Virus record (IMG/VR): IMGVR_UViG_3300011113_000747
Span: 1 to 64,000 of that record
DNA from: a virus
Strand: one strand, 5' to 3'
DNA length: 64,000 bases
The notes below the pieces were generated by a model. It was given only the letters and a program-made list of their open reading frames with translations, made no database searches and was not told the DNA's origin. Position numbers and translations under genes: made by a program. Positions within the stretch are counted from its first letter, which is position 1. The number at the start of each line of letters is the position of its first letter. Below are positions 1,680-54,660 of the stretch, in pieces.

Positions 1680-1686
1680 GCTCGTA

Positions 1687-2489: not shown

Positions 2490-2529
2490 GCAAGAATATA
2501 TCAAAAGGGAAAGTCGATATAATATTATT

Positions 2530-2808: not shown

Positions 2809-2849
2809 GCACGAAGTGTCACTAAAAGGAAAGTTAATATAATATTATT

Positions 2850-3110: not shown

Positions 3111-3150
3111 TTTAATTGAGAGCTTTTAGGAAAGTTAATATAATATTAAT

Positions 3151-3351
3151 ATGAAAATCATCGAAATTAATGTTGCTGAGAAGAGTGTTAAGATTGAGTA
3201 TGTGGGTAAAGAAAGGTTAGTGACTTTTAGTGATAATGGTGATATTGATGTTGAGCCTTTTGGTGACTTGAGTGATTGTGAAAGTGAAGTGTTGTTTGAT
3301 AGTATTTTGAATAGTGAAGAGATTAATTGTGCTCTTCCTTTTGAAGACTAA
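3151..3351 (+). CDS. Small acidic early protein, unknown function
   Basis: 66 aa, Glu/Asp/Val/Ser-rich. Promoter at 3129 (C-free variant). Cytosine use is low but not zero, intermediate between normal genes and the C-free neighbours. Terminator at 3369-3394 follows. Confidence 0.75.
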   Translation: MKIIEINVAEKSVKIEYVGKERLVTFSDNGDIDVEPFGDLSDCESEVLFDSILNSEEINCALPFED

Positions 3352-3368
3352 AAGAGAATTTGAGATAA

Positions 3369-3394
3369 GGCAGCAGGGTGAAAGCTCTGCTGCC
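3369..3394 (+). terminator. Hairpin terminator
   Basis: 8-bp perfect stem GGCAGCAG/CTGCTGCC (3369-3376 with 3387-3394) followed by a CTCCTCCC tract, between the gene ending at 3351 and the promoter at 3410. Confidence 0.65.
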
Positions 3395-3431
3395 TCCTCC
3401 CGTCGCTAAGGAAAATTAATATAATATTATT

Positions 3432-3713
3432 ATGCAAGAAATTAAAAATTATAATGGGCTTAGCAATGATGAAGAGGTGGAGTTGCTTAATGAGATGGTG
3501 GGTGAAATGTGTGATGAGTATGGTGATGGTTTGATTGGTTTGAGTGAGTTGGTGAGTGTGATTTGTGGTAAAGAGTTTTATAATAAGTATGATGATGAAG
3601 ATTTGGATTATGTGAAAGAGGTGATGAGGGAGTTTTGTAGGGTGAATGTGGAGTTTAATTTGGAGAATGAAGATGTGTATTTGGTGAGTTTTGTGGATGA
3701 AGATGAGGAGTGA
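3432..3713 (+). CDS. Nearly cytosine-free early gene
   Basis: 93 aa, very acidic (many Glu/Asp), with only four C residues, all in the first 55 nt; none from 3487 on. Ala, Pro, Thr and His are absent and only one Gln occurs. Promoter at 3410. Function unknown. Confidence 0.7.
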   Translation: MQEIKNYNGLSNDEEVELLNEMVGEMCDEYGDGLIGLSELVSVICGKEFYNKYDDEDLDYVKEVMREFCRVNVEFNLENEDVYLVSFVDEDEE

Positions 3714-3745
3714 AAAGGGAGAGGGAAAATTAATATAATATTAGT

Positions 3746-3988
3746 ATGAAAGAAATGAAAGTTAATATTGAAAATAAAGTTGTTGGAATTTTGGATGAAG
3801 ATAATGTTTTGGGGTTTGTGGAAGTGAATGAAGATGTGAAAGATTTGTGGAATGGTTGTTTGGTTGTTGAGAGTGGGAAGTATGGTTATATGGATGATAT
3901 GGTGGTGTTTGTTGGTGATAGTGAAGATGAAGTGAAGAAGGAAGTGAAAGAATTTTTGAAGAAAGAGATTGAAGAAAGAGATTGGTGA
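3746..3988 (+). CDS. Cytosine-free small early gene
   Basis: 80 aa, no C on the coding strand; Ala, Pro, Thr, His and Gln absent; rich in Val, Glu, Asp and Lys, with an acidic/basic helical C-terminus. Promoter at 3724. It lies in a 554-nt C-free run (3487-4040) that also covers its promoter and both flanks. Confidence 0.7.
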   Translation: MKEMKVNIENKVVGILDEDNVLGFVEVNEDVKDLWNGCLVVESGKYGYMDDMVVFVGDSEDEVKKEVKEFLKKEIEERDW

Positions 3989-4044
3989 GGGGTGTGGAGG
4001 GGAGAGGTGGAAGGATAAGAAAGGAAAATTAATATAATAACTTT

Positions 4045-4200
4045 ATGAAGACGCTATTTACAATTAAGATTGACAAAATGGATGCCTTTAATAAAGTGCG
4101 GCGCGGGCCGGCTGGTAAAGGTAAGTTTGGGGGTTATGCCTTTCGAGATAAGACGAAATATTGTCGCAAAGAGAAGTTCCGATCTCAGAGAGGGGTGTGA
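4045..4200 (+). CDS. Small basic early protein, unknown function
   Basis: 51 aa (MKTLFTIKIDKMDAF...), Lys/Arg-rich C-terminal half. Promoter at 4023 with the ATG at exactly +22. Followed by a strong terminator with T-run, so it ends the plus-strand half of the array. Family not recognised. Confidence 0.7.
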   Translation: MKTLFTIKIDKMDAFNKVRRGPAGKGKFGGYAFRDKTKYCRKEKFRSQRGV

Positions 4201-4224
4201 GCGATACAAAAACAATTTCTATAG

Positions 4225-4257
4225 AGCAGAGGGGTGTATAGCTCCTCTGCTTTTTTT
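4225..4257 (+). terminator. Rho-independent terminator
   Basis: Stem AGCAGAGG/CCTCTGCT (4225-4232 with 4244-4251) followed directly by TTTTTTT. Canonical intrinsic terminator ending the first plus-strand early block. Confidence 0.85.
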
Positions 4258-4468
4258 ATGGCTATTAGTTCCATTCTGATCTCTCTACTCCTTGCAGTTA
4301 TTAGAAAAGTTAGAACGCGACGAGAGAACAGGGGAAGAGCGCCCCCCTTTCGGAGAGCGCTCTCGGTTGTTTTATCAGATCAATACCTATTCAATTGACA
4401 GGCTTGACCTAATAGAATGAAAATTAGTAGAATTAATACAATCATATTTTGTTAAGTTAATGTTAGGC
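4258..4468. other. Intergenic gap between convergent early blocks
   Basis: No convincing ORF or promoter seen. It contains a hairpin with AGAGCGC/GCGCTCT arms (4336-4342 with 4357-4363), possibly a terminator for one of the two converging blocks. The rest is AT-rich. Confidence 0.5.
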
Positions 4469-4768
4469 TCAGGCCTTGGCTTTCGCCTTAGCCTTCTTAG
4501 CCTTCTGAGCTGCCAGCAGCTGGCGAGCCTCTTTCATCTTGAGCTTATAAGCCTCATAACGAGCCACCTTATTAGCGGCCTTCTCAGCCTCAGCCTCAGC
4601 ATTCACTTCAGCAGCCCAAGCCGCAATCTCAGCTTTATGCTGCAGCCCAAACTCAATCAGCTTATTCATAAGCTCTTTCTCGCCAATATTCAGCTCATCT
4701 CGCAGAGTCTGAACCAATTCTTTATCAGCATTGAAGACCATCGTAGCAGTGAATTTAGCTTCTTTCAT
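4469..4768 (-). CDS. Lys/Ala/Glu-rich helical protein
   Basis: 99 aa from MKEAKFTATM; a mostly helical Ala/Glu/Lys protein with a repetitive C-terminal tail of AK repeats. The frame stays open upstream through a (GAAA)n repeat to near 4819, but the first ATG is at 4768. The minus-strand early promoter at 4822-4837 would give a ~45-nt leader with a purine-rich AGAAAG stretch before the ATG, so unlike its neighbours this gene would not be leaderless. Basic tail suggests nucleic-acid binding (inference). Confidence 0.7.
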   Translation of the reverse strand: MKEAKFTATMVFNADKELVQTLRDELNIGEKELMNKLIEFGLQHKAEIAAWAAEVNAEAEAEKAANKVARYEAYKLKMKEARQLLAAQKAKKAKAKAKA

Positions 4769-4821
4769 ATTCTTTCTTTCTTTCTTTCTTTTTATTTTAT
4801 TTACTTTCTTCTTACTCAAAT

Positions 4822-4837
4822 ATTATATTAACTTTCC
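4822..4837 (-). promoter_or_regulatory. Minus-strand early promoter
   Basis: Reverse strand reads GGAAAGTTAATATAAT, the same element as in the plus-strand array. It directs the Lys/Ala-rich gene at 4469-4768; the predicted start near 4815 leaves a short leader. Confidence 0.7.
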
Positions 4838-4847
4838 CTTTCGCATT

Positions 4848-4982
4848 TTATATAAATTGCGCAAATTTAATATTAATATAACTTTCTTTCACATCATTAT
4901 TATATGCACTTTCCCTTTCAAGGGCTGCATTATTAATAAGCTTAATTTTAATAAGCTTATTTTTAATAATAACGTTTTGCAT
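4848..4982 (-). CDS. 44-aa basic early peptide
   Basis: ATG at 4982 lies 22 nt after the GGAA of the promoter at 4989-5004. Encodes a Lys/Ile/Asn-rich 44-aa peptide (MQNVIIKNKLIKIKLI...). A second promoter copy sits inside the frame (4899-4914), ending on a GTG that would give a 14-aa in-frame product. Short, so moderate confidence. Confidence 0.5.
   Translation of the reverse strand: MQNVIIKNKLIKIKLINNAALERESAYNNDVKESYINIKFAQFI
4899..4914 (-). promoter_or_regulatory. Minus-strand early promoter (internal)
   Basis: Reverse strand GGAAAGTGCATATAAT, 22 nt before an in-frame GTG. Nested inside the 44-aa ORF. Confidence 0.6.
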
Positions 4983-4988
4983 AATAAT

Positions 4989-5004
4989 ATTATATGCACT
5001 TTCC
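4989..5004 (-). promoter_or_regulatory. Minus-strand early promoter
   Basis: Reverse strand GGAAAGTGCATATAAT with ATG at 4982, the standard 22-nt spacing. Divergent from the plus-strand promoter at 5033. Confidence 0.7.
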
Positions 5005-5054
5005 CTTGCTGCCTTTTACCATCGTCGTAATCGGAAATACGATATAATATCGAT

Positions 5055-5216
5055 ATGCAAAAAGAACTTGAAGCTAAGCTCGCTGAAATTAATGCAGAAA
5101 TTGCAGAACTTGAGGGTGATACCGAAATGGAGACGGCATACTATCTCGGCAGAATCTGGGCTCTAAAGGATATGAAAGAGTGGCTTGAGGGTATGATTAC
5201 AAATTATTGCGAATAA
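5055..5216 (+). CDS. Small coiled-coil early protein
   Basis: 53 aa (MQKELEAKLAEINAEI...), an N-terminal heptad-like Leu/Ile/Ala coiled coil, then a mixed C-terminus. Promoter at 5033. Likely oligomeric or a small binding protein; function unknown. Confidence 0.7.
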   Translation: MQKELEAKLAEINAEIAELEGDTEMETAYYLGRIWALKDMKEWLEGMITNYCE

Positions 5217-5241
5217 TTTGGAACACATATATAATAATGAT

Positions 5242-5382
5242 ATGAGCAGAACGCTTCGCAAACCTTATACAAAATCAAAACGCTTTGACAAATCTTGTCG
5301 CTCTCATGGTGGTTGCTCTTATTGTTTGGGCAACAGAATGCATAATACGAAAAAGAGAGAGCTTGCTGCTAACGCTGAATAA
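5242..5382 (+). CDS. Small Cys/His-containing basic protein
   Basis: 46 aa, basic, with a Cys-His-Cys-x2-Cys-x5-His cluster (CRSHGGCSYCLGNRMH) that could bind zinc. Promoter at 5220; stop runs into the promoter at 5383. Proposed zinc binding is inference. Confidence 0.7.
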   Translation: MSRTLRKPYTKSKRFDKSCRSHGGCSYCLGNRMHNTKKRELAANAE

Positions 5383-5404
5383 GGAACCTCAATATAATAA
5401 TGAT

Positions 5405-5548
5405 ATGAGAGAATATCAATTCTATTATGAGACGCGAAAAAAGACTGGCACACATACTGTCCGTGCTGATGGTTATGTTGATGCTCTTCAGAAGCTCAAG
5501 AAAGAAATCCGAGGCATCATTTACTTCAAATCGATCGACAATCAGTAA
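5405..5548 (+). CDS. Small early protein, unknown function
   Basis: 47 aa (MREYQFYYETRKK...). The frame is open from 5285, but the promoter at 5383 fixes the ATG at 5405. Pattern resembles small phage beta-alpha 'DUF' proteins, but I cannot name a family. Confidence 0.75.
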   Translation: MREYQFYYETRKKTGTHTVRADGYVDALQKLKKEIRGIIYFKSIDNQ

Positions 5549-5570
5549 GGAACCCCAATATAATAATAGT

Positions 5571-5843
5571 ATGAGCAAACCATTCGATACGGGTAAGATG
5601 TTCGACGCTAGCAAGTTTTATTGGATTGGCAATCGTGGTATTGCTGATGCTTCTGAGCTCGGTCTCAAGGCTGGTGATGTGCCTTATAGTTACGTCTATT
5701 ATTATGAATGCGGTACTGGGATGATTCTCCACAATCCTAAGAAAGGAACGCGTATGGATTTTATCCTCGATTCGTCTGATGAAACTGGATGGCATTTCAA
5801 ATCGGTTGATGGTAAGGTGTTTGTTACCATCTATAACGACTAA
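5571..5843 (+). CDS. Early protein, unknown function
   Basis: 90 aa, starts MSKPFDTGKM; aromatic-rich, likely a small beta domain. Start chosen from the promoter at 5549 although the frame is open from 5427. Confidence 0.75.
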   Translation: MSKPFDTGKMFDASKFYWIGNRGIADASELGLKAGDVPYSYVYYYECGTGMILHNPKKGTRMDFILDSSDETGWHFKSVDGKVFVTIYND

Positions 5844-5866
5844 AGGAACCTCAATATAATATCGAT

Positions 5867-6043
5867 ATGAACGAAGAACTAAAAAATCATCGCATGCGAA
5901 TGCTTGCTCAGCATGTTTTGAGCGTACTAACCAATCCAGGTGTTGACAATCATTACGATATGGAGCGCATATTGTATGCCGCGCTCGATCTTGGATTGGT
6001 TGAATACAATAATGAAGATGAATTGGTGAAGAAGGAACACTGA
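5867..6043 (+). CDS. Small helical early protein
   Basis: 58 aa (MNEELKNHRMRM...), predicted helical. Its last codons and TGA (6041-6043) overlap the next promoter (GGAA at 6034), showing how tightly coding sequence and promoter are packed. Confidence 0.75.
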   Translation: MNEELKNHRMRMLAQHVLSVLTNPGVDNHYDMERILYAALDLGLVEYNNEDELVKKEH

Positions 6044-6055
6044 TATAATATCAAT

Positions 6056-6253
6056 ATGAACGACGAGCAAAAGCTCAAAATGCTCAATAAGTTTGCGAAA
6101 GACTTTGCCAAGCTTATGGCTAAATATCCAGACGTTAGTGTGTGGAGTGATCGAGATGGGGATGTGGTTGGGCATGTGAGCTTGCAAATGCCAAGTTACA
6201 AAAACAAACATGGCAACATTCAATTGACTTATCAAGGAAAGGTGATACAATAA
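6056..6253 (+). CDS. Early protein, unknown function
   Basis: 65 aa, N-terminal helix then a short beta-rich part. Promoter at 6034. Its C-terminal codons overlap the next promoter (6236). Family not recognised. Confidence 0.75.
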   Translation: MNDEQKLKMLNKFAKDFAKLMAKYPDVSVWSDRDGDVVGHVSLQMPSYKNKHGNIQLTYQGKVIQ

Positions 6254-6257
6254 CAAT

Positions 6258-6485
6258 ATGATAGAAATGACCAACACTGATTTCATCTGCTTCATGCATG
6301 AAGCCGCTCATCCACACGATAACCCATCTTCAGAACATGCTGAAATAATGGACGAAGCTGCTCGACGCATTCAGAAGCTTGAAGCTGAACTGCAAGCTTG
6401 GAAGAGGGCTGCTGATAATGGAGCAGGGTGTGATACCCCTGAAGGTTTAGCTAACTTCATTTATGATTGTGGCGATTACTGCTAG
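6258..6485 (+). CDS. Small acidic early protein
   Basis: 75 aa with a central helix (AARRIQKLEAELQAWKRA) of the kind seen in many small phage proteins. The promoter at 6236 has TACAAT in place of TATAAT. Confidence 0.75.
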   Translation: MIEMTNTDFICFMHEAAHPHDNPSSEHAEIMDEAARRIQKLEAELQAWKRAADNGAGCDTPEGLANFIYDCGDYC

Positions 6486-6506
6486 GAAAGTAGATAAAAT
6501 ATAAGT

Positions 6507-6596
6507 ATGAAAGAGCTAATTGAAAAGGTAAATGCAGGTGAAATTACCCTCGACCAAATGGTAGCTTTATTGGCTGCTATTAGTGAAGCGAAGTAG
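6507..6596 (+). CDS. 29-aa early peptide
   Basis: 29 aa (MKELIEKVNAGEITLDQM...), a possible two-helix micro-protein. Promoter at 6485 (TAAAAT variant) and correct spacing support it despite its length. Confidence 0.6.
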   Translation: MKELIEKVNAGEITLDQMVALLAAISEAK

Positions 6597-6617
6597 GAAC
6601 ACTGATATAATAATAGT

Positions 6618-6860
6618 ATGAAAGCAATTAAAACAACCGCAAATAATAAGATGACGATCAAAGACATTTTCAATATTGGTGACAAAGTTACTTGGACTAC
6701 AAGCTGGTTTGATGGTCGTGTTACAGAGTTTACAAAGCATAGTGGGCGAATTGTAAAGGTTAACAACAAAACTGTTAACGTTGCAACACCTGCAGGTAAT
6801 GTTGTGAAGCTTAGAGCGTTTAAGAATATTACCACTAAAGAGTGGATGGTTGGTGAATAA
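6618..6860 (+). CDS. Early protein, probable SH3-like fold
   Basis: 80 aa; the pattern 'NIGDKVTWTTSWFDGRVTEF...GRIVKVNNKTVNV' looks like a small SH3/KOW-type beta barrel (inference). Promoter at 6596. Confidence 0.75.
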   Translation: MKAIKTTANNKMTIKDIFNIGDKVTWTTSWFDGRVTEFTKHSGRIVKVNNKTVNVATPAGNVVKLRAFKNITTKEWMVGE

Positions 6861-6890
6861 TCAAAATAGGAACTCTGATATAATATTAGT

Positions 6891-7151
6891 ATGAAATTAG
6901 ATATGATCTGCTGGATGACAGAACAAGGCAATGAATGGCTCAAAGAAGAGTTTGAAGATTTGACTCCTGAATTGGTGGTAGATTATGTCAACCGAACCAA
7001 AACGCAAGCTGACAATCTGGTAAAAGGTTGGAGAAGGAATGGAGAAGAAGTTAGTCTAACTGTAGTTTTAGAAATCAATTCTTTGGTTAAGTTTGATCGA
7101 ATTGAAAGACTAAAACAAATCAACACTGTTCTAGATGAGCTAGGATTTTAA
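6891..7151 (+). CDS. Helical early protein, unknown function
   Basis: 86 aa, predicted helical. Promoter at 6869, the last member of the continuous early array; the next gene downstream carries a late-type promoter. Confidence 0.75.
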   Translation: MKLDMICWMTEQGNEWLKEEFEDLTPELVVDYVNRTKTQADNLVKGWRRNGEEVSLTVVLEINSLVKFDRIERLKQINTVLDELGF

Positions 7152-7186
7152 TATGAAATATCTACTAGTGGAGCATAAATAATGAT

Positions 7187-7600
7187 ATGAGCAAATCTAA
7201 CAATATCGTCGACAAACTAGCAAAGATCTATATGGAGTCAGTCCAACCAGGTAAAACAATCAACGAACAGAGCGGTGCAAAGGTGGTGTATATTGTGGTG
7301 TATGAATCACAATTTGAGGGTCAAACTCTAATGGGTATCTACTCCACTGAGGAAGCAGCTGAGCAAGCTCTCCAACAAGCAACTGATGAAGATAGTAGTG
7401 GTTATTCAGTTAAAGAGATTGCGATGGATAGACCAGCCGTTTGGGACCTACTCAACAATGCACGTAAGGTAAAGGTCAAACCGAAAGCAGCAGCACGTAA
7501 ACGTGAGACAGCACGAGAGCTTAATGCAGCTGCAGATCGTCGCAGACAACAACGCGTTGTTGATCGTGATGGTAGTATTAGAATGATAGGTCACCGCTGA
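7187..7600 (+). CDS. Capsid-tagged small late protein
   Basis: 137 aa. A late promoter (CATAAATAATGATATG) places the ATG at the transcript start. N-terminus contains two candidate cleavage motifs of the T4 prohead-protease type, IYME and TINEQ. The body is paralogous to the gene at 8588: both have KTINEQ-G, then a Val/Tyr strand, and QQAL/QAL helices. C-terminus is Arg/Lys-rich. Proposed role: internal head protein delivered with DNA (inference from the tag family). Confidence 0.75.
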   Translation: MSKSNNIVDKLAKIYMESVQPGKTINEQSGAKVVYIVVYESQFEGQTLMGIYSTEEAAEQALQQATDEDSSGYSVKEIAMDRPAVWDLLNNARKVKVKPKAAARKRETARELNAAADRRRQQRVVDRDGSIRMIGHR

Positions 7601-7618
7601 AAGGAGCTCCTAGGATCG

Positions 7619-7647
7619 GATTAGGATTGGAATAGGATTAGGATTGT
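7619..7647 (+). repeat. GGATTA short tandem repeat
   Basis: Several GGATT(A/G)-type units lie just upstream of the sigma70-like promoter. Could be a binding site or simple repeat. Confidence 0.5.
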
Positions 7648-7648
7648 G

Positions 7649-7676
7649 TTGACAATCCAAAAACATCCTCTATAAT
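7649..7676 (+). promoter_or_regulatory. Sigma70-like promoter
   Basis: Perfect TTGACA (7649-7654) and TATAAT (7671-7676) with a 16-nt spacer, preceded by a GGATTA-type repeat. It is the clearest classical host-type promoter in the window and differs from both phage promoter classes. It would drive the lipoprotein gene and/or the GC-rich RNA downstream. Confidence 0.8.
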
Positions 7677-7691
7677 CTAGATCAATTGCAT

Positions 7692-7880
7692 ATGAAACAT
7701 CTACTACTAGTATTGGTTAGTATGGTTATGGTTGGGTGTAGTGGTGTGGGTAGGGTAGAGGTAGATGGCGTCATCCCTTCCTGCATGATGGATTCCCTTC
7801 AGCTCGAACACTCGCTCAATCGTGGTAACCCTCTCGAGAAGCAGACCCTCTCCGAGAGAACCTGTCGCGAGACTTTGTAG
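7692..7880 (+). CDS. Putative small lipoprotein
   Basis: 62 aa with a hydrophobic signal (MKHLLLVLVSMVMVGC) ending in a lipobox-like V-M-V-G-C, so a lipid-anchored envelope protein is predicted. Expressed from the sigma70-like promoter at 7649. The C-terminal half falls in GC-rich sequence with no recognisable domain. Possible roles for such phage lipoproteins include superinfection exclusion or spanin-like function; neither can be shown here. Confidence 0.5.
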   Translation: MKHLLLVLVSMVMVGCSGVGRVEVDGVIPSCMMDSLQLEHSLNRGNPLEKQTLSERTCRETL

Positions 7881-8030
7881 TGAGAGAAGGACCGGGGCCC
7901 GGGTCTGGGGGTGCATGGTCCAAATTTTTCGCGCGCTCCCGGGGAGATTCTTAGAAAGGGGTTCCTCTATACCCGCGGGAGATTTTGCGCGCTCTTCCCC
8001 GAGACTTTCTATATAGGGGCTTAAATAATA
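7745..8030 (+). ncRNA. GC-rich island, possible structured RNA
   Basis: Composition is sharply GC-rich compared with flanks. From 7925 two imperfect copies of a unit built around TTTT-CGCGCGCTC-(C/T)-C-CCGGGAGA...CT(A/T)TA occur (about 7927-7975 and 7982-8022). Potentially transcribed from the promoter at 7649. No known RNA family recognised. Confidence 0.35.
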
Positions 8031-8032
8031 CT

Positions 8033-8359
8033 ATGACACGCAAAGACATTAATCTACTTGCTGAAGCTTATAAAGAAGCATCTATGGGGGACTGGGAAAC
8101 TGAATGGGATAATATGACACCACCTCCGAGCGTGTTTGAAAGAGCTCTTGCTGATCCTACCAATTTTGATCTACATATTACTAGTGAAGAAGGTCTTGAC
8201 TGGGATAACTTTAAGATGCATCCTGTATATACGGTATATGAAATTGGTAGTAATGGTAAGTATGGTGACTATGAAGTGGTATCTAACTATGCTGATATTG
8301 AAGATATTGTAGATGCATTTGAAAAAAAGAACCCACAAGGTATTAAAGATAAAAGATAA
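8033..8359 (+). CDS. Capsid-tagged late protein, MTRKDINLLAEAY family
   Basis: 108 aa. The frame is open from 7985 but the late promoter (TTAAATAATACTATG) sets the start at 8033. Begins with MTRKDINLLAEAY, shared almost exactly by four consecutive genes; it resembles T4 capsid-targeting peptides and contains an L-A-E cleavage motif. The remaining acidic body is unrelated to its neighbours. Function unknown. Confidence 0.8.
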   Translation: MTRKDINLLAEAYKEASMGDWETEWDNMTPPPSVFERALADPTNFDLHITSEEGLDWDNFKMHPVYTVYEIGSNGKYGDYEVVSNYADIEDIVDAFEKKNPQGIKDKR

Positions 8360-8367
8360 ATAATATC

Positions 8368-8583
8368 ATGACACGCAAAGACATTAATCTACTTGCTGAA
8401 GCCTACGGAAATTCTGATGAGGTTGGTAATTTAGCTAGGCAATTTCGCTATAATGATAAAGTTAGGCAAATACTAAAAGACTTAGCACATCACGGTAAAA
8501 TTTCAAACTTGGAAGCAGATAATGATGCATTTGAAGCAATGTTATATGCTTTTGCAGCAGGTTACCATATGAGAAATAAATAA
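8368..8583 (+). CDS. Capsid-tagged late protein, MTRKDINLLAEAY family
   Basis: 71 aa. Promoter GATAAATAATATCATG; tag followed by a helical body (VRQILKDLAHHGKIS...). Same tag DNA as its neighbours but a different body. Function unknown. Confidence 0.8.
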   Translation: MTRKDINLLAEAYGNSDEVGNLARQFRYNDKVRQILKDLAHHGKISNLEADNDAFEAMLYAFAAGYHMRNK

Positions 8584-8587
8584 TATC

Positions 8588-8869
8588 ATGACACGCAAAG
8601 ACATTAATCTACTTGCTGAAGCTTTCAGTTCGACTAAACCTAAAACTATTAATGAACAGAATGGTGATGCTGTGTATGGTCTTATTAATACCGCTGATGG
8701 TCCAACATTAGTTGGTTTGTATGTATCACAAGAACAAGCTCAGCAAGCTCTTGATGCCTTTTTAGCAACCCCAGAAGGTGAGAATGAAACTGATTATTTT
8801 TACATTACACCACTTGCGTTAGGTCAACCAGTTAACTTTGATTACATTTATGACACGCAAAGACATTAA
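8588..8869 (+). CDS. Capsid-tagged late protein, paralog of 7187 gene
   Basis: 93 aa. Tag MTRKDINLLAEAF, then KTINEQNG and a body matching that of the 7187 gene (QAQQALDAF versus AAEQALQQA, PVNFDYIYD versus PAVWDLLNN). Two (L/I)-x-E sites (LAE and INE) suggest removal of the whole leader. The end overlaps the start of the next gene by 20 nt. Confidence 0.8.
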   Translation: MTRKDINLLAEAFSSTKPKTINEQNGDAVYGLINTADGPTLVGLYVSQEQAQQALDAFLATPEGENETDYFYITPLALGQPVNFDYIYDTQRH

Positions 8870-9041
8870 TCTTATCACTGAAGCCTATGAGAAGAATAAG
8901 GTTGATGCAGAACAACTCAGAATCGGAATTGAAGTTGAACTTGAACATACCGATGATGAGAAAGTTGCTGAGAAGATCGCACGTGATCACTTAGCAGAAG
9001 ACCCTCACTATTACACCAAGTTAAAGAAAGCTGGACTATAA
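8850..9041 (+). CDS. Capsid-tagged DUF5661-like protein
   Basis: 63 aa. Tag MTRKDINLITEAY, then the pattern '(Q)LRIGIEVELEHTDD...VAEKIARDHLAEDPHYYTKL', which matches the family annotated DUF5661, common in phages and bacteria but of unknown function. Start at 8850 rather than 8838, by alignment of the tag. Confidence 0.8.
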   Translation: MTRKDINLITEAYEKNKVDAEQLRIGIEVELEHTDDEKVAEKIARDHLAEDPHYYTKLKKAGL

Positions 9042-9049
9042 ATAATAAT

Positions 9050-9454
9050 ATGAATCGCAACGATCAAAAATTACTCTCTAATCTCTATCTTGAGAACATT
9101 AATCAATTCGGCGCTAAGTCTGCTTCATCTGAAGAGATGGCTGGTATGTTAGCTAAGAATCCAGCAGCTGGTCAATCAATGGAGACATCTTATTCACTTA
9201 ATGCTCCTGAAGGTTATGAAGTTGATTATGATGGTAGTACTCTTACTGTAAAGAGAACAATCAATGGTCTTGAGTCTACAACGATGACAAAAATGGGTAA
9301 GAAGCCTATAGAAGAGGTTCAGAGAGATGTCGACTATCAAGTAGCTTATGATGAGTTTATGAGCAAAAGAGGTGGTGGAGCTAGCCCACAACAAGCAGCT
9401 GACGCAAAGAGTGCTTTCTTAGCTAAGCAGAAGCAGATTTACAGTAAGAAGTAA
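9050..9454 (+). CDS. Capsid-tagged late protein, unknown function
   Basis: 134 aa. Late promoter TATAAATAATAATATG. N-terminus MNRNDQKLLSNLYLENI is a diverged tag with L-Y-L-E. The rest is Ala/Gln/Lys-rich and soluble. Confidence 0.75.
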   Translation: MNRNDQKLLSNLYLENINQFGAKSASSEEMAGMLAKNPAAGQSMETSYSLNAPEGYEVDYDGSTLTVKRTINGLESTTMTKMGKKPIEEVQRDVDYQVAYDEFMSKRGGGASPQQAADAKSAFLAKQKQIYSKK

Positions 9455-9474
9455 ATAGCGAAAAAATCCGCTTT

Positions 9475-10176
9475 ATGTCCTTATTTGAAGAGAGATTTCT
9501 AGATAAGGTCGCATTTGTTTTACTCAACGCTATATTGTATACCGGTGAGTATAATGCGATCTTAGATAGGTTAAATCCAAACGAGAAGGTTAAACTCGTT
9601 AACTATCTTCCGGATGTTAAAATGGCTCCGGCGCAAAAGGAAAAGGTAAAGCAGGTTGTAATGACTAGCTTAAAGCAGGATCAAGCTGTTCCTAAAGCTA
9701 TTCCTTATACAGGTAGTTCCAATATAACCAAATTAAGGAAAGCTCTTATTGAGAAGCTTAAAAAGGAAGAAGGAGTTATTCCTCATATGTATAAAGACCA
9801 TTACGGAAATCTAACTATCGGTATTGGTCATTTAGTTACACCAAAAGAAGTTCCTTATTATCGTAATCGTACATTAACACAAAAGGAAATGTTAGACTTA
9901 CTTAATAAGGATATCGATTGGAAATTATCTCTCATTAAGAAAGACTTTCCTAAATTTAATTCATATCCTTTTGATTTGCAGATGATGATTGCAAATGGAT
10001 ACTTTAGAGGTGATCTTGCTGGTTCACCTCGCACTAAAATGCTTATCAGACAAGGAAAGTTTAAACAAGCTGCTGAAGAATATTTAGATAACGCTGAGTT
10101 TAAACGTGAAGCAAAAGTTAAATCTGGTGTATATAAAAGGATGCTTAAAAATGCGAACGTTTTAAGAAGCATGTAA
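9475..10176 (+). CDS. T4-type lysozyme (GH24) with N-terminal extension
   Basis: 233 aa. Residues ~90-230 form a T4 lysozyme-like glycoside hydrolase 24 domain that cleaves peptidoglycan: Glu99 (EEG), Asp108 (YKDHYG) and Thr114 (LTIGIGHLVT) have the same spacing as the T4 catalytic Glu11/Asp20/Thr26. Residues 1-80 are an extension not found in T4 gpe. Downstream of capsid-tagged genes, so it may be either the lysis endolysin or a virion lysozyme; no holin is adjacent. Confidence 0.85.
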   Translation: MSLFEERFLDKVAFVLLNAILYTGEYNAILDRLNPNEKVKLVNYLPDVKMAPAQKEKVKQVVMTSLKQDQAVPKAIPYTGSSNITKLRKALIEKLKKEEGVIPHMYKDHYGNLTIGIGHLVTPKEVPYYRNRTLTQKEMLDLLNKDIDWKLSLIKKDFPKFNSYPFDLQMMIANGYFRGDLAGSPRTKMLIRQGKFKQAAEEYLDNAEFKREAKVKSGVYKRMLKNANVLRSM

Positions 10177-10192
10177 GCTATAAATAATATAG

Positions 10193-10741
10193 ATGAAAGA
10201 TAGAGATACATTGTTGCTACAAGAAGCTTATGCTGCTATAAATACCCAACATCAGCTTAATGAATCATTTTTTAATACAGTTGCTGACGCCATTGAGTAT
10301 TTACAGAGTGGAGCTGGAGCAGCATTGTTAGTTGTGTTTCGTAAACAGATACATAGCATATTGAGAAAAGTAGGTGTACCATTAAAGGCTAATAAAAAAG
10401 AATTAATATCTTTACTAAATAAGGTTAACCAAGAACTTAGTTTATTACAAAATAATCAGCGTGCTAATACATTAGACACATTTAAATTATATGATGAGGT
10501 TATAGAAAAATTAAAATATAACTTAGAACCCACAACTACAGCTGCGTTGAGAACACAATCTAGAACACCTGGTATACGAACACATGCAGATGTTACTCAG
10601 TTAGGTAAGGCAATAAAAGGTGTTATTTATAGTTTAATTGGTAACATGCCTGACAGTAAATCATTACCAAAAACTAAAGCTGTTTTGATGATGGTATTAT
10701 TATCTATTGCTATAAAGCAAATTTTAGATTTATTTCACTAG
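10193..10741 (+). CDS. Capsid-tagged late protein with C-terminal hydrophobic segment
   Basis: 182 aa. Late promoter TATAAATAATATAGATG. N-terminus MKDRDTLLLQEAY contains L-Q-E, and LNES follows, a second candidate site. A hydrophobic helix sits near the C-terminus (AVLMMVLLSIAIKQIL), so membrane association after injection is possible. Function unknown. Confidence 0.75.
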   Translation: MKDRDTLLLQEAYAAINTQHQLNESFFNTVADAIEYLQSGAGAALLVVFRKQIHSILRKVGVPLKANKKELISLLNKVNQELSLLQNNQRANTLDTFKLYDEVIEKLKYNLEPTTTAALRTQSRTPGIRTHADVTQLGKAIKGVIYSLIGNMPDSKSLPKTKAVLMMVLLSIAIKQILDLFH

Positions 10742-10780
10742 CAAGTAAAATATTAAATAATATAGTAACCACAACAATTT

Positions 10781-10993
10781 ATGCCTTTACCTCTTTTAGC
10801 TAAAAAACTTTTCGGTCGTAAAAGAAAGAAATCTCCACCACAGTTTGTAATCAGAAATTACGGGTCGTTTAGATTACCTGATGAATTGTATTTTTTACCA
10901 GCTACAGGTAAAGCTAAAATTGTACTTGATCTTTATAAAAACCTATCATCCAGAAAACTCCAAAGTGAAAGGGATATTGTAGAAAGGGAATAA
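10781..10993 (+). CDS. Small basic late protein
   Basis: 70 aa, Lys/Arg-rich N-terminus (LLAKKLFGRKRKK). Late-promoter-like TTAAATAATATAG lies 25 nt upstream, leaving a short leader. Function unknown. Confidence 0.7.
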   Translation: MPLPLLAKKLFGRKRKKSPPQFVIRNYGSFRLPDELYFLPATGKAKIVLDLYKNLSSRKLQSERDIVERE

Positions 10994-11001
10994 ATATTAT
11001 T

Positions 11002-11289
11002 ATGGCAGAAGCAGCAGCAAGTAAATTAATTTCTAGAATCAACATTTCTTTAACTGGTGTTGCTAATCCATTTACACCAACGCAGTTTGCAAGGTTACAA
11101 GAAATTAAAGGGCTATTACAAAATCCATTATATTCAGGGGCTGGTGGTTTAGATCTCTTAAGACGTTTTGATAGACGTACTTTTAATGAGTATAATAGGC
11201 TATCGAGAAGTTTTAGTAATGCTACCACTAGACGAGATGCTCTTCCTGGATTTTTTGTTATACAAAGAAGTGTAACTCGCGGACTTTAG
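11002..11289 (+). CDS. Small late protein, unknown function
   Basis: 95 aa, basic, starts MAEAAASKLISRI. Late promoter AATAAATATTATTATG puts the ATG at the transcript start. Family not recognised. Confidence 0.7.
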   Translation: MAEAAASKLISRINISLTGVANPFTPTQFARLQEIKGLLQNPLYSGAGGLDLLRRFDRRTFNEYNRLSRSFSNATTRRDALPGFFVIQRSVTRGL

Positions 11290-11303
11290 TATTAAATAAA
11301 GTC

Positions 11304-11507
11304 ATGAAAATGTTATCTGAAAACTCAGTTAAGTTGTGCTGTAAAGCTAAAAAAGGTTGCCCAGAGTTAACCAAAGTGGATGAAGAATTTTATTCTATTA
11401 AGGACGACGACGGCAACGTTATAAAAATTCATAAAGATGAGCTTAAGCTTGTTGGTGATGCTGTTAAGTTAATTGATGAGTCGAGAGAAAAGCTTATCTT
11501 GGGATGA
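11304..11507 (+). CDS. Small Cys-containing late protein
   Basis: 67 aa with CCKAKKGCP near the N-terminus followed by an acidic beta/helix part ('DDGNVIKIHKDELKLVGDAV'). Late promoter TTAAATAAAGTCATG. Overlaps the next gene by 4 nt (ATGA), so translation is probably coupled. Confidence 0.75.
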   Translation: MKMLSENSVKLCCKAKKGCPELTKVDEEFYSIKDDDGNVIKIHKDELKLVGDAVKLIDESREKLILG

Positions 11508-11776
11508 CCACATTCGCAATAATCGGCCTTACCTTTATTCTCAAATACGGGGATATATTACATTCAATTAGGCAATCTTTATGTGAAAACTCAAGATATT
11601 TTACAAAGCTTTTTGAATGTGCATTGTGTCTGGGGTTTTGGTCTGGGTTATTTATCGGCATAGTAACAAAAGAAAATATTGTTACTATGCCTTTTTATGG
11701 AGCTGCAGTCTCTTTTTTTGCAGATTTAATTATGGAATTAATATATTCCACTATGCGTAGGTTAGATAAAGATTAA
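11504..11776 (+). CDS. Small membrane protein (DUF1360-like)
   Basis: 90 aa with hydrophobic segments near residues 1-15, 40-55 and 60-80 and a CALCLGFWSG motif, similar to the Cys-x2-Cys-x-G-F/V-W signature of DUF1360-type phage/bacterial membrane proteins. Coupled to the upstream gene by ATGA overlap. Role unknown. Confidence 0.65.
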   Translation: MTTFAIIGLTFILKYGDILHSIRQSLCENSRYFTKLFECALCLGFWSGLFIGIVTKENIVTMPFYGAAVSFFADLIMELIYSTMRRLDKD

Positions 11777-12120
11777 CCCTGTTTGTGAGCCTTAATAGCT
11801 TCTTTTAATTTACCTAAAACAAACACACAATAATCCATATCTTTTATTCTAGCATCTTCCATTTCTTTGGTAATCATCGCAAGTATAGTTTCTTTTCTGA
11901 CTTCACCTAAATCAGATTCTTCATATTCCACAGGTGCTGCTACTGTTGGGTTATATCCAATAGCTCTATCTACCTTATCAGGGTTTGTAGTAGGTGGTGG
12001 TCTTCTATAAGTGGTTGTTGCTTGTCTTTCTTGAGGTGGTGAATAATTTGTTAACGGGGTGTCTATACTTATACCATTATAGCCTTCATAAATTTTTTGT
12101 ATTTTTCGTAAGTCAGACAT
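11773..12120 (-). CDS. Capsid-tagged late protein on minus strand
   Basis: 115 aa; starts MSDLRKIQKIYEGYNG (I-Y-E cleavage motif), then a Pro/Thr-rich linker and a helical C-terminus. A TATAAATA element lies 10 nt upstream of the ATG. Convergent with the 11504 gene. Function unknown. Confidence 0.7.
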   Translation of the reverse strand: MSDLRKIQKIYEGYNGISIDTPLTNYSPPQERQATTTYRRPPPTTNPDKVDRAIGYNPTVAAPVEYEESDLGEVRKETILAMITKEMEDARIKDMDYCVFVLGKLKEAIKAHKQG

Positions 12121-12152
12121 TGTTTAATTATATTTATAGTATATAGTTTTGT

Positions 12153-12614
12153 ATGTTGAAAAAGTTCATAACATGGAATGAAATTCATAACTATATTAAA
12201 CAATCTGATGTAGTTAAAAATAATCAAGATGTGGATTTAGTTGTAGCTGTTGGTTCAGGTGGCATGATACCAGGTGTAATTATTGCAAAGTTGCTTGATA
12301 AGCCTGTTATTAATATCGGTGTTAAGACATATAACGCTAATTTGAACGAGCAAACATACATGGCACAATGGTATCAGAAGTTTGATTTTAAAAAATCGAA
12401 ACATAAAAAGCTTTTGGTTGTTGATGATATTAATGATACAGGATTTACTCTTGCAACTATTAACTCATTTTTAATGTCTGGATTTTATACAGAACAGGAT
12501 GTAAATTATTTTACAGTATTTTCAAAGCCAAGATCATATTTTAGATGTGATAGTGCTGCTGAAGTAGCTGATGACGCTTGGTTAGTTTTTCCATGGGAGG
12601 TAAATAATGAGTGA
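12153..12614 (+). CDS. Purine phosphoribosyltransferase-like protein
   Basis: 153 aa. Type I PRTase fold: a Val/Gly-rich strand-loop (VVAVGSGGMIPGVIIA) and the PRPP-binding motif LLVVDDINDTGFTL; the C-terminal DAWLVFPWE resembles xanthine-guanine phosphoribosyltransferases. Predicted to convert a free purine base plus PRPP to a nucleotide. Fits with GMP reductase and RNR nearby. Substrate is inferred. Confidence 0.8.
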   Translation: MLKKFITWNEIHNYIKQSDVVKNNQDVDLVVAVGSGGMIPGVIIAKLLDKPVINIGVKTYNANLNEQTYMAQWYQKFDFKKSKHKKLLVVDDINDTGFTLATINSFLMSGFYTEQDVNYFTVFSKPRSYFRCDSAAEVADDAWLVFPWEVNNE

Positions 12615-12975
12615 TAGAAAAGTAATATGTTTAATTACAGGTCAGTCTGTAATGATGGGTAAAGATTATTTTGCTAAAAAAGCAGAAGAGTATGGTAGTG
12701 AAGATAATCTACGTAAGTATTACATAAGCAAGAAGGCAAAAAGCTTAGTAAGGAGAGGTTATTCTGTAAATGAAATTCGTAAAATTCTAAATGTCACTGA
12801 ACCTGGATTACCTGGTGGTGATACACAAGATGTTATTGATATTATAAACTACCATAAAGTTGAAAAACAAAGTATATCAGAAAAACGGATTGATAGTGCT
12901 CAAAACTTTATGATGCAGTCTTCTGATGAAGATGTAAAAGAATTTATAAATAATATTAAGAAATTAAATTTATGA
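12607..12975 (+). CDS. Conserved-looking phage protein, unknown function
   Basis: 122 aa, basic helical protein (SKKAKSLVRRGYSVNEIRKIL). A real Shine-Dalgarno (GGAGGT) lies 5 nt before the ATG, which overlaps the end of the upstream PRTase gene, so the host uses SD-led translation. The helical repeat may bind nucleic acid (inference). Confidence 0.75.
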   Translation: MSDRKVICLITGQSVMMGKDYFAKKAEEYGSEDNLRKYYISKKAKSLVRRGYSVNEIRKILNVTEPGLPGGDTQDVIDIINYHKVEKQSISEKRIDSAQNFMMQSSDEDVKEFINNIKKLNL

Positions 12976-13202
12976 CAAAGCGTTTTATTCCATCCGTTTC
13001 AGGTACCAATCAGATTAAAATTTATAATGCTGAAACAGGCAATCTATATAAAGTTTTCAATGTGGGTGGTAAAATTACCGGTCAACCAATTGTAACAGAA
13101 TCAGAACTTTACGTAGAAGTTACCACAACAGGTAATAAAAAATTTATCAGATATTATAGCTTACCTAATTTTACTCTTAAAAAGTCTGTAAATTTAGATT
13201 AA
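12972..13202 (+). CDS. Small beta-rich protein, unknown function
   Basis: 76 aa; the pattern 'NQIKIYNAETGNLYKVFNVGGKITGQPIVTESELYVEV' resembles one or two beta-propeller/PQQ-like blades. Overlaps the previous stop (ATGA). Function unknown. Confidence 0.65.
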   Translation: MTKRFIPSVSGTNQIKIYNAETGNLYKVFNVGGKITGQPIVTESELYVEVTTTGNKKFIRYYSLPNFTLKKSVNLD

Positions 13203-13257
13203 AAAAAAGATAATAACTTGATTGTTTTGTATCATGGTATATACTAAATAGTATACT

Positions 13258-26605: not shown

Positions 26606-28126
26606 TTACAAGTAAACAGACTGTGTACCTGGAGTGAACGCAGTACCGAGACCGGTTACAATTACAACGTGGTAATAGAGATTTGCACCAAAGATGTTAT
26701 CGACAACACCATAACGAGTAAGCAAGCCTACGCGTGGAGCGAAGTCGTTTGGACCGATGGTTCTCTGTACCATGATAGGAATGTAAGGGCAATAGATGAT
26801 ACCTGTATCATAGAACTCTGGACCCTTGTAGCCAAGCAATGCATATTCAAGAGCTGTTGAGCGTGTTGAATATCCAGTGTTTGTATAACCTGGGTTTTGA
26901 GCTTCTGTACGTGTATCACGGTAAACTGTGAATCTACCACCAACTGTACCAACCTTAGCAATACCTACACCTTGTGTGTTGACGTTTCCATCAACAGACA
27001 TCCACTGGAATTCAGGGAGCATTTCAAGGATAGCGCACACACGTGGTGTTGCTACGATGAAGTTTGCTGCCCCTCTTCTGTTGCGGACGGCGATACGGTT
27101 TGCTTCGATGATAAGCTTCTGATAGAAGTCACGATTGCGTTCTGCTAACCAGCGACCGTCAGCTGAGGCTGGACTCCAGAAAGAGTAACCTGCTGTAGCG
27201 CCACCGTTAAGAGCTGATTGGATCATTCTCATTACCATTTCACGGTCGATTTCTGCTTGAATTTCATACGACATTGCGTTGGTTAATTCAGCATCGATAT
27301 CGATACCGTTCATGTTTTTGAGATCCTGCTCTAATTCGATGGACCAGCGAGCACCTAATCTACGAGTACCTGCTTCAACGGAGGTTTTCTCGAAACTTAC
27401 TTCAACTGTAGGGATATTGGAGTTGATTTCGAAATTCTTAAGAATTTCTGCAACACCTTGATCAGGAGCGAGGAACTCGAAAGCAGAACCTGTACCAAGA
27501 CCACTAAGGGCCCCAGCAGAAGTACCTGTAAAGCGAGTTTCAAGGAACTGATATCCTAATTCGTTGTTGCCAGCGGAAGGTGTAACTGAATAGCTAACAC
27601 CAATCTGGTTGTGGGCTGCACCGGTAGCTGAAGCTGCAGTAGGTGGAGTACCATTAGTGAAGTAACCATCTGTGAGGTTAGCACCACCAAGGGTCTGTGA
27701 ACCATACTTGTAGCGAAGCGCGAATGCAAGACCAACTGGACCAGACATAGGCTGGACACCAACGATTTCGTTAGAAATAAGCTCTGGGAATGTACGTCTG
27801 ATCATCGGAATAAGGATCTTAGGAAGGCGTGCGTCACCAGTAGCATAGTTGTCACCATTTGGTACTGCACCACCGTAATTGTTCAGGTTAACTGAACCGT
27901 TACTGAATGCAGAACCGGTACCACCAGCTTGGTTAGCTTCACGGAAGCAGAACTGTTCTTGGTTCTCAAGAAGTACTGCAGTCGCATAGCGCTTATAAGA
28001 ATCCTCGATTGGAGCAACTGTATCTGACGAATAGTCAAGTACAGGAGCCCACTTTTCAAGAAGAGCGTCAGCTCTTGATTGATCGATGAAGGACTGTGGA
28101 GCGTTGATTTTCATACGTTTTATCAT
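26606..28126 (-). CDS. Major capsid protein, gp23-like
   Basis: 506 aa. HK97-fold T4 gp23 homologue: '(L)IPMIRRTFPELISNEIVGVQPMSGPVGLAFALRYKYG' matches the T4 'VRRAIPNLIAFDICGVQPM' region; FEKTSVEAGTRRLGARWSIELEQDLKNMNGIDID and C-terminal GPNDFAPRVGLLTRYG are also typical. The start at 28126 (MIKRMKINAPQ) is chosen because GAGG lies 6 nt upstream; the frame extends to 28138. It has an SD-bearing leader, unlike most late genes here. Confidence 0.93.
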   Translation of the reverse strand: MIKRMKINAPQSFIDQSRADALLEKWAPVLDYSSDTVAPIEDSYKRYATAVLLENQEQFCFREANQAGGTGSAFSNGSVNLNNYGGAVPNGDNYATGDARLPKILIPMIRRTFPELISNEIVGVQPMSGPVGLAFALRYKYGSQTLGGANLTDGYFTNGTPPTAASATGAAHNQIGVSYSVTPSAGNNELGYQFLETRFTGTSAGALSGLGTGSAFEFLAPDQGVAEILKNFEINSNIPTVEVSFEKTSVEAGTRRLGARWSIELEQDLKNMNGIDIDAELTNAMSYEIQAEIDREMVMRMIQSALNGGATAGYSFWSPASADGRWLAERNRDFYQKLIIEANRIAVRNRRGAANFIVATPRVCAILEMLPEFQWMSVDGNVNTQGVGIAKVGTVGGRFTVYRDTRTEAQNPGYTNTGYSTRSTALEYALLGYKGPEFYDTGIIYCPYIPIMVQRTIGPNDFAPRVGLLTRYGVVDNIFGANLYYHVVIVTGLGTAFTPGTQSVYL

Positions 28127-28188
28127 TTTGGACCTCATGGGATTGGATACCCAAGCAACTCAAGTCATACGATTGACTTCATTAAACC

Positions 28189-29034
28189 TTACTTCTTACC
28201 AAGTTGACCGAGATAAGAAGAAATTAGTGGATTATGGCTTTGACCTTTGTTGCTTTCTGTAACAACTTTAGGTGCATCACTCTTAACAGTGCGATTATTG
28301 AATGCTTGTTCCTTAATGGTTTCAAGCTGTTCAGCTTCTCTCTTGTCATAGAGTTTTGATACATAATCAAAATTCTCTTGCACAAACTTAAGATCTTTAT
28401 CAGAAAGAATCTTTTTGATGTATTCTTTCTTAGATACTGTCATTTTAGCGACATTAGACTCAATGAATAAATTCTTATTCATGTCATCAATTTTCTTCTT
28501 AAGTTGAGCGTTTTCTGTTGCAAGCTTATTTGCTTGTTGGGTAGCTTCATCAATTTGTTGCTTACCCTCAACAACTGCATCTTTGATAGACTCTTTCATA
28601 AGAGCTGAATCAACTGCAAGTGTCTTTCTTAAACCTTCAAGAATTGCAACTGCTTGCTTATTCTTAGTAGCTTCTTCGATTGCTTCTGCTGGAATAGCTT
28701 CGTCAATATAAGCTTCAAGGTATGTGGAAATATTATCTACAATCTGTGATTTGAATGTAGAAGCGGACTCATTTAATTCTGTTTCGTATTTCTTTACGAT
28801 ATTAATGAGCTTTGCGGAATTGTTTTTGTCAATAGCTTCAACGACCTTAGTAAGCTTTTCAGAGTGGTCTTTGTTGATAGCTTCAAGAAGTGACTTTAAT
28901 TTTGAAGCGTAAAGTTCATCTTGCTTAGCAAGAGCTGATTCAACATGAAGATTAAGCTTTTGTGTAAATGCATTTTCAATTGCATTAACTGACTCTTCTG
29001 ATAAGATGTTCTGTGGGATTAGGTCCTTAAGCAT
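28189..29034 (-). CDS. Prohead core scaffold protein, gp22-like
   Basis: 281 aa, almost entirely helical, Lys/Glu/Ala-rich with coiled coils. Position between gp21 and gp23 as in T4. The scaffold is expected to be degraded by the gp21 protease during head maturation. N-terminus MLKDLIPQNILSEES contains ILSE. Confidence 0.85.
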   Translation of the reverse strand: MLKDLIPQNILSEESVNAIENAFTQKLNLHVESALAKQDELYASKLKSLLEAINKDHSEKLTKVVEAIDKNNSAKLINIVKKYETELNESASTFKSQIVDNISTYLEAYIDEAIPAEAIEEATKNKQAVAILEGLRKTLAVDSALMKESIKDAVVEGKQQIDEATQQANKLATENAQLKKKIDDMNKNLFIESNVAKMTVSKKEYIKKILSDKDLKFVQENFDYVSKLYDKREAEQLETIKEQAFNNRTVKSDAPKVVTESNKGQSHNPLISSYLGQLGKK

Positions 29035-54201: not shown

Positions 54202-54660
54202 ATGAAAAAAGATTTAAAACTCATTGCAGAAGCTTATAACAAGGTTATTATTGAACAAATAACTGATGATTGGTTTCAACAAGGAGCATTTCAAGCTTAT
54301 AAAAAGCCAGCAAAAGAACCATATCAAGTTGCAAAGCAAGATGGTGTGTTACAGACCTTAGAAGGACCACAACAATACAAAGCTGGTTTTTATATTATTA
54401 CAGGACCGAAAGGTGAAAAATATTCGATGCCTCCAGAAAAATTCAATGAATTAAAAGATGATAACGGGGATGGTACAGCTTCACCTAAAAAAATTATTAA
54501 GCAAGTAAAATTAGCTGATTCAGATGGTGTTGTAAAAACTTCATGGGGAGCTGATTTACAATATAAGTCTGGGGAAGATTATATTGTTAAACATGGTCCG
54601 GGTGATTATGGTGTGGTAAAGAAAGATATTTTTCAGCAAACATACGTATCCGAACAATAA
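54202..54660 (+). CDS. Capsid-tagged late protein in the tRNA array
   Basis: 152 aa. Late promoter AATAAATATTAACATG. N-terminus MKKDLKLIAEAYNKVIIEQ has I-A-E and I-I-E sites of the tag family. The body has two related halves (residues ~45-90 and ~100-145: 'DGVLQTLEGPQQYKAGFYIITGPKGEKY' and 'DGVVKTSWGADLQYKSGEDYIVKHGPGDY'), an internal duplication of a small beta domain. Function unknown. Confidence 0.8.
   Translation: MKKDLKLIAEAYNKVIIEQITDDWFQQGAFQAYKKPAKEPYQVAKQDGVLQTLEGPQQYKAGFYIITGPKGEKYSMPPEKFNELKDDNGDGTASPKKIIKQVKLADSDGVVKTSWGADLQYKSGEDYIVKHGPGDYGVVKKDIFQQTYVSEQ

What the first reader, a model, noticed from the sequence alone, without database searches (positions are those of the whole stretch)
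8033..8885. DNA-level repeat of promoter-tag module fused to unrelated bodies
The tag DNA is identical in four adjacent genes while the bodies differ. This looks like homologous-recombination shuffling of a packaging-tag cassette onto new cargo.
Basis: inference. Interest (0 to 1): 0.7.

Follow-up and report, generated by a model that had tools for sequence, protein, structure and literature searches.

The report
Shared packaging-tag cassette on phage genes
In an uncultured T4-like phage, four neighbouring genes with unrelated bodies carry a near-identical stretch of DNA of about 23 to 47 bases that looks like a late-gene start signal joined to a short "load me into the virus head" tag, so the phage seems to keep an easily copied cassette for adding new cargo proteins to its particles.

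Summary
ATGACACGCAAAGACATTAATC occurs exactly four times (8033, 8368, 8588, 8850; 0 expected). In three copies the identity runs on to +35 and back through a T4-type late promoter (TAAATA at -11), then stops abruptly at the bodies. The fourth copy has no promoter, is shorter, and overlaps the end of gene 3. Bodies 1-4 are mutually unrelated; body 4 is DUF5661.

Best reading: MTRKDINLLAEA is a T4-style capsid-targeting propeptide ending in a prohead-protease site ([L/I]xE), copied as DNA onto different cargo. T4 ipII and ipIII show the same pattern (36+ identical bases, then unrelated bodies), so the kind of system is known. Different here: four copies; a tag family (MxxKDxxLLxEAY) on dozens of cargoes in related uncultured phages; and a cassette joining a late promoter directly to the start codon, with no ribosome-binding site.

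Body exchange is supported by DUF5661 with other fronts in other phages, a gene 3 paralogue with another front, and a PGDYG protein, 83% identical in two phages, carrying each phage's own tag type. Homologous recombination as the agent is inferred; no orthologous array was found.

By-product: this phage clade appears largely leaderless.

The parts
8022..8032 (+). T4-type late promoter core TAAATA at -11 plus spacer, copy 1 (TAAATAATACT)
   Evidence: sequence; TAAATA starts at -11 in 35 of 277 called genes of this genome
8033..8359 (+). gene 1, 108 aa: tag MTRKDINLLAEAY + body with no detectable relative
8033..8067 (+). tag DNA copy 1 (35 nt)
8357..8367 (+). late promoter core plus spacer, copy 2 (TAAATAATATC)
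8368..8583 (+). gene 2, 71 aa: tag + body with no detectable relative (tag DNA 8368-8402)
8577..8587 (+). late promoter core plus spacer, copy 3 (TAAATAATATC, identical to copy 2)
8588..8869 (+). gene 3, 93 aa: tag + body paralogous to the ORF at 7187; its last codons are encoded by gene 4's tag DNA in another frame
   Evidence: BLASTP E 5e-10 to 7187-7597; body z 13.4 against shuffles
8850..9041 (+). gene 4, 63 aa: variant tag MTRKDINLITEAY without a promoter + DUF5661 body
   Evidence: Pfam PF18905 E 7e-17 over residues 16-60; homologues in 27 viral loci with other N-termini
7187..7600 (+). 137 aa, DUF7336-type body paralogous to gene 3 behind a different N-terminus (MSKSNNIVDKLAKIYMESV), own late promoter at -11
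9050..9454 (+). neighbour with a decayed tag-like start (MNRNDQKLLSNLY) and late promoter TATAAATA at 9037-9044; lacks the LxE site
10193..10741 (+). 182 aa, diverged tag MKDRDTLLLQEAY, promoter TATAAATA at 10179-10186
54202..54660 (+). 152 aa, diverged tag MKKDLKLIAEAY + PGDYG body; 83% identical to a tagged protein of another phage (L118)
29339..30001 (-). prohead protease (T4 gp21 type, Peptidase_S77), the expected processing enzyme; itself starts MAMRLNLLVE
   Evidence: PF03420 E 1.3e-33
28189..29034 (-). scaffold protein (by gp22 position and relatives), with an N-terminal ILSE|E candidate cleavage site
26606..28138 (-). major capsid protein gp23 with candidate cleavage site LLE|N at residues 56-59; E58 present in 99% of an 81-row alignment

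Best explanation
Four adjacent genes carry copies of one DNA cassette: a T4-type late promoter (TAAATA at -11; three of the four copies), an ATG placed where transcription should begin, and 12 codons for a propeptide, MTRKDINLLAEA. Shown: the DNA is copied, ends sharply at the bodies, and the bodies are unrelated. Inferred: the propeptide acts like the T4 capsid-targeting sequence. It binds the scaffold core, carries the cargo into the prohead, and is removed by the gp21-type protease after LAE or ITE, leaving small cargo proteins in the head that are injected with the DNA, probably to counter host defences or aid takeover. Also inferred: because promoter, start codon and tag fit in about 47 bp with no ribosome-binding site, copying that stretch in front of a new reading frame makes it late-expressed and packaged in one step; repeats of this length are good substrates for T4-type recombination (UvsX is present), which would copy, homogenise or delete cargo. 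Copy 4 joined without the promoter and would depend on read-through from gene 3.
For: Exact four-fold repeat, zero in shuffles. Codon identity unlikely by independent origin, sharp boundaries, unrelated bodies. The genome has a gp21-type protease, a gp55-like late sigma factor and UvsX. The protease, scaffold and major capsid protein of this clade have N-terminal L-x-E candidate sites (LLVE, ILSE, LLEN); the gp23 glutamate is 99% conserved over 81 rows, and the tag ends LLAE|A. The genome has 7 genes with the tag pattern and no hit for the reversed control pattern. The same tag form with a late promoter occurs in 45 viral stretches, about 42 distinct cargoes, almost none with a known domain. 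All four tagged records larger than 138 kb among ten tested have the protease. Tags are more alike within a phage (0.79) than between phages (0.55); 0 of 5000 permutations reach this. T4 ipII and ipIII show the same DNA pattern; of these IPIII's targeting was tested directly (PMC9026906). In T4 the first 10 residues of IPIII suffice for targeting and the cleavage motif is L/I-X-E; IPI and IPIII act against host defence.
Against: No virion proteomics; packaging and cleavage are not demonstrated. The tag does not match the T4 targeting sequence MKTYQEFIAEA residue by residue (LxE at 9-11 rather than 8-10). Across late-promoter genes of this clade the frequency of an N-terminal [LI]xE is only modestly above background (14.5% against 7.9%). 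Bodies 1 and 2 have no relatives found, so their function is unknown. The pattern used to find tags in relatives required D5, L8, E11 and Y13, so their conservation there is partly circular.
Confidence: 0.72

Rival explanations
1. Old tandem paralogues: one tagged gene duplicated in tandem and the bodies diverged beyond recognition while selection kept the tag.
For: The genes are adjacent and on one strand; gene 3 and the ORF at 7187 are true paralogues.
Against: The tag DNA is identical including rare synonymous codons (p about 4e-5 per copy), while bodies 1-4 have no significant similarity; body 4 is a DUF5661 domain found in other viruses with unrelated N-termini. Other tags in the same genome keep the peptide pattern with different codons, so peptide selection alone does not freeze the DNA.
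Confidence: 0.08
2. The shared DNA is a regulatory element: a late promoter plus a translation-start region for leaderless mRNA, kept at the nucleotide level and not mainly a packaging tag.
For: Identity includes the promoter and abuts the ATG; leaderless translation can depend on the first codons (own knowledge).
Against: Other late-promoter genes in the same genome do not share these codons; in relatives the amino-acid pattern is kept while the nucleotides differ; copy 4 keeps the tag without the promoter.
Confidence: 0.1
3. The N-terminal segment is a targeting signal for another place (tail, membrane or a host factor), with the LxE fortuitous.
For: No direct localisation data; the tag sequence is not that of T4.
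Against: LxE at the tag end matches candidate sites in three head proteins of the same phage; a tagged cargo in a relative resembles a PARP/ADP-ribosyltransferase domain, the class of the known T4 head-injected protein Alt (annotation).
Confidence: 0.1

Closest known systems
T4 internal protein genes ipII and ipIII (capsid targeting sequence, CTS)
   Same: Adjacent small genes; identical 5' DNA module (from about -12 to beyond +32) followed by unrelated bodies; N-terminal propeptide of 10-13 residues ending in [L/I]-x-E|A, cleaved in T4 by gp21.
   Different: Here four copies; the tag is MTRKDINLLAEA rather than MKTYQEFIAEA; the shared module carries the late promoter and no ribosome-binding site, whereas in T4 it carries the ribosome-binding site (AAAGGAAACAT).
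T4 Alt and the polymorphic T-even internal-protein loci
   Same: Diverse cargo behind a conserved CTS, described as a way to incorporate various proteins into T4-like capsids (PMC3012670, PMC9026906).
   Different: No Alt homologue identified among the four array genes; relatives' cargo includes one PARP-like protein (L097), just under Pfam's cut-off.
DUF5661 domain proteins of phages
   Same: Gene 4 body, E 7e-17.
   Different: Elsewhere the domain sits in much longer proteins that look like prohead proteases or portal proteins, or behind MKAFKSFFKEV.

Membership tests
T4-type capsid-targeted internal proteins | short N-terminal propeptide shared by proteins with unrelated bodies | tested here: met
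T4-type capsid-targeted internal proteins | propeptide ends in the gp21 cleavage motif L/I-x-E | tested here: met
   LAE in genes 1-3, ITE in gene 4; motif from PMC9026906
T4-type capsid-targeted internal proteins | gp21-type prohead protease in the same genome | tested here: met
   PF03420 E 1.3e-33
T4-type capsid-targeted internal proteins | late expression | tested here: inconclusive
   late-promoter sequence at -11 for genes 1-3 and a gp55-like sigma factor; expression itself not measured; gene 4 has no promoter of its own
T4-type capsid-targeted internal proteins | sequence of the T4 CTS (MKTYQEFIAEA) | tested here: not met
   similar in length and cleavage motif only; so 'works like', not shown 'homologous to'
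T4-type capsid-targeted internal proteins | proteins found inside the mature head in cleaved form | not testable with these tools
   needs virion proteomics
T4-type capsid-targeted internal proteins | injected into the host and active there (for example against restriction) | not testable with these tools
   bodies 1 and 2 have no relatives found
DUF5661 (PF18905), gene 4 body | score above Pfam's curated cut-off | tested here: met
   62 bits against 27

The most novel reading that the evidence does not exclude
A widespread clade of uncultured T4-like phages makes mostly leaderless mRNAs, with the -10 box of early (AAGGAA-N6-TATAAT-N6-ATG) and late (TATAAATA-N5-ATG) promoters fixed to the start codon. 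This shrinks 'express late and package' to a cassette of about 47 bp that is copied onto arbitrary reading frames, so head-delivered effectors can be gained in one recombination step.
Probability: 0.4. Interest if true: 0.7.

Novelty: new variant of a known kind. Interest (0 to 1): 0.5.

Why it matters
If true, one can list the head-delivered (likely anti-defence) proteins of many uncultured aquatic phages by the tag alone, most of which have no known domain. The array catches cargo acquisition at the DNA level and gives a comparison for the T4 ipII/ipIII pair. The leaderless cassette gives a simple reason why acquisition could be easy in this clade and raises a testable question about how the unknown hosts start translation.

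Tried and rejected
No DNA relative of the region in 50,697 phage records. The gene 1 body, the neighbouring lysozyme and the gene 3 body gave no relatives in viral contigs, so the direct test on an orthologous array could not be made; the gene 2 body was not scanned there. The tag back-translated with degenerate codons (MTRKDINLL) is absent from other viral contigs. The ORF at 10193 has only chance-level hits in phages. Rfam found no RNA family in window 1-16000, and the GC-rich stretch before gene 1 folds no better than shuffles. Convergent evolution of the peptide was rejected on codon identity. Early-promoter pattern hits in bacterial genome contigs are single and scattered, i.e. look like chance. 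The UvsY search was empty but had no positive control. The primary paper on T-even polymorphism (Repoila et al. 1994) was not held. No structure prediction was run: bodies 1 and 2 have no relatives to align.

Full report
What is there. Window 8033-9041 holds four genes in a row on the + strand (108, 71, 93 and 63 aa). Each begins with the same 22 bases, exact, none expected by chance. Copies 1-3 share 35 bases of coding DNA; copies 2 and 3 also share all 12 bases before the ATG, and copy 1 shares 9 of them. These contain TAAATA starting at -11, the core of a T4-type late promoter. Copy 4 keeps 23 bases, then diverges (CTTATCACT for CTACTTGCT) and rejoins at CTGAAGC; it has no promoter and begins inside the end of gene 3, whose last codons are read from the tag DNA in another frame.

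More than a conserved peptide. Given the codon usage of this phage, a second gene coding the same 11 residues would use the same codons with probability 4e-5. Identity between copies drops to near background at +36. Bodies 1-4 show no significant similarity to each other (the best pair, 1 and 3, only equals its top shuffle). The body of gene 3 is paralogous to the ORF at 7187 (E 5e-10), which has a different N-terminus.

The setting. The window is part of a 184,542-base virus record of a T4-like phage with a gp23 major capsid protein only about 34% identical to that of isolated phages but up to 74% to uncultured ones. It encodes a gp21-type prohead protease, a gp55-like late sigma factor and UvsX. 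Three further genes (10193, 54202 and 123009-123701 on the - strand of the record) carry the same peptide pattern with different codons; the reversed control pattern gives none.

What the tag is. T4 internal proteins have 10-19-residue propeptides that target them to the prohead core and are cut by gp21 after L/I-x-E; the first 10 residues of IPIII suffice (PMC9026906). The tag here is 11-12 residues and ends LLAE|A or LITE|A. In this clade the protease (LLVE), the scaffold (ILSE) and gp23 (LLE|N; E in 99% of 81 rows) have comparable N-terminal sites. The T4 pair ipII/ipIII, compared here, is identical from -12 to beyond +32 and its bodies are unrelated (z -1.6). So the kind of arrangement is known; the present case has more copies, another tag sequence, and a promoter in place of the ribosome-binding site.

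Relatives. A pattern for late promoter + tag finds 45 stretches in viral contigs and about 42 distinct cargoes. Few domains are recognisable: DUF5661, PGDYG and a PARP-like domain (24.5 bits, cut-off 26.7), plus marginal matches. Some stretches carry several tagged genes: five in L118, four in L110. Tags within a phage are more alike than between phages (0.79 against 0.55; 0 of 5000 permutations). The PGDYG protein at 54202 and its relative in L118 are 83% identical, yet their tags differ at the four variable positions of DxxLLxEAY, and the L118 tag is of the type of its neighbours (QQLLEEAY). Shared descent of tags within a lineage, co-adaptation with the scaffold, or copying could each produce this; the identical DNA in the window shows that copying does occur.

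Body exchange. DUF5661 (gene 4) is found in 27 viral loci, with matches mostly starting at query residues 15-21, just behind the tag. There it sits in long proteins resembling prohead proteases or portals, in short proteins without the tag, or behind MKAFKSFFKEV with a late promoter (L155, L156). This supports a mobile body meeting a local tag. It does not identify the recombination route. T4 is known to recombine at 2-10 bp repeats (PMC9391042), so a 23-47 bp repeat would be ample; that step is inference.

Leaderless architecture. In 277 called genes TATAAT starts at exactly -12 in 41, and TAAATA at -11 in 35 and at -12 in 10, where 0.2-0.3 per position are expected; only 6 have a Shine-Dalgarno-like motif. 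The early class also has the G, G, A, A of AAGGAA at 90% or more, at -24 to -19. Relatives chosen by gp23 show the same (TAAATA at -11 in 152 and at -12 in 54 of 918 genes), HTVC008M in part (8 of 49), T4 and cyanophage S-SM2 not. gp21 orthologues keep TAAATA at -11 in 28 of 58; but gp23 genes of the clade often have an AAGGA-type motif instead (35 of 79), so the clade is not wholly leaderless. Gene calling here was a simple longest-ORF scheme, which would blur rather than create fixed spacing. Transcription starts were not measured.

Verdict. Observation confirmed; interpretation partly supported; a new variant of the T4 internal-protein kind. Searches of the held literature found no report of leaderless promoters in such phages, which is weak evidence of novelty since most subscription papers are missing.

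Noticed in passing
whole record G000, e.g. window 5033-6896 (early) and 7187-11002 (late): Promoter -10 boxes at fixed distance from ATG (TATAAT at -12 in 41 genes, TAAATA at -11/-12 in 45 of 277) with almost no Shine-Dalgarno motifs: predicted leaderless mRNAs, also in gp23 relatives and partly in pelagiphage HTVC008M.
   Followed up: partly
early genes of G000, e.g. window 6594-6620: Conserved AAGGAA at -24 to -19, six bases before TATAAT, in place of a recognisable -35 box; clusters of 3-7 such sites occur in about ten other viral contigs (L194, L195, L224, L233, L251 and others).
   Followed up: partly
window 7601-8016: GC-rich stretch (49% against 35%) with a textbook TTGACA/TATAAT promoter, a short lipoprotein-like ORF (7686-7880, MKHLLLVLVSMVMVGCSG) and GC-rich repeats; no relative found, looks foreign.
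   Followed up: partly
window 56346-56828 (+): 160-aa ORF resembling an R-S-E ADP-ribosyltransferase by eye (LYRGAEP ... EQEI), with late promoter at -11 and MKFDDVVNEAL start; no Pfam hit.
   Followed up: partly
window 60666-61268 (-): Cytidylyltransferase-like protein (weak Pfam match) starting MKSFKQFILEQ, which resembles the T4 targeting sequence; possible enzyme cargo of the head.
   Followed up: no
L097:2292-3050: Tagged cargo (MTNKDIALIAEAY) with a PARP-like domain just below Pfam's cut-off, reminiscent of T4 Alt.
   Followed up: partly
L142, L146-L152, L143, L145: DUF5661 domain inside long proteins that look like prohead proteases or portal proteins, suggesting a role in the phage head.
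   Followed up: no
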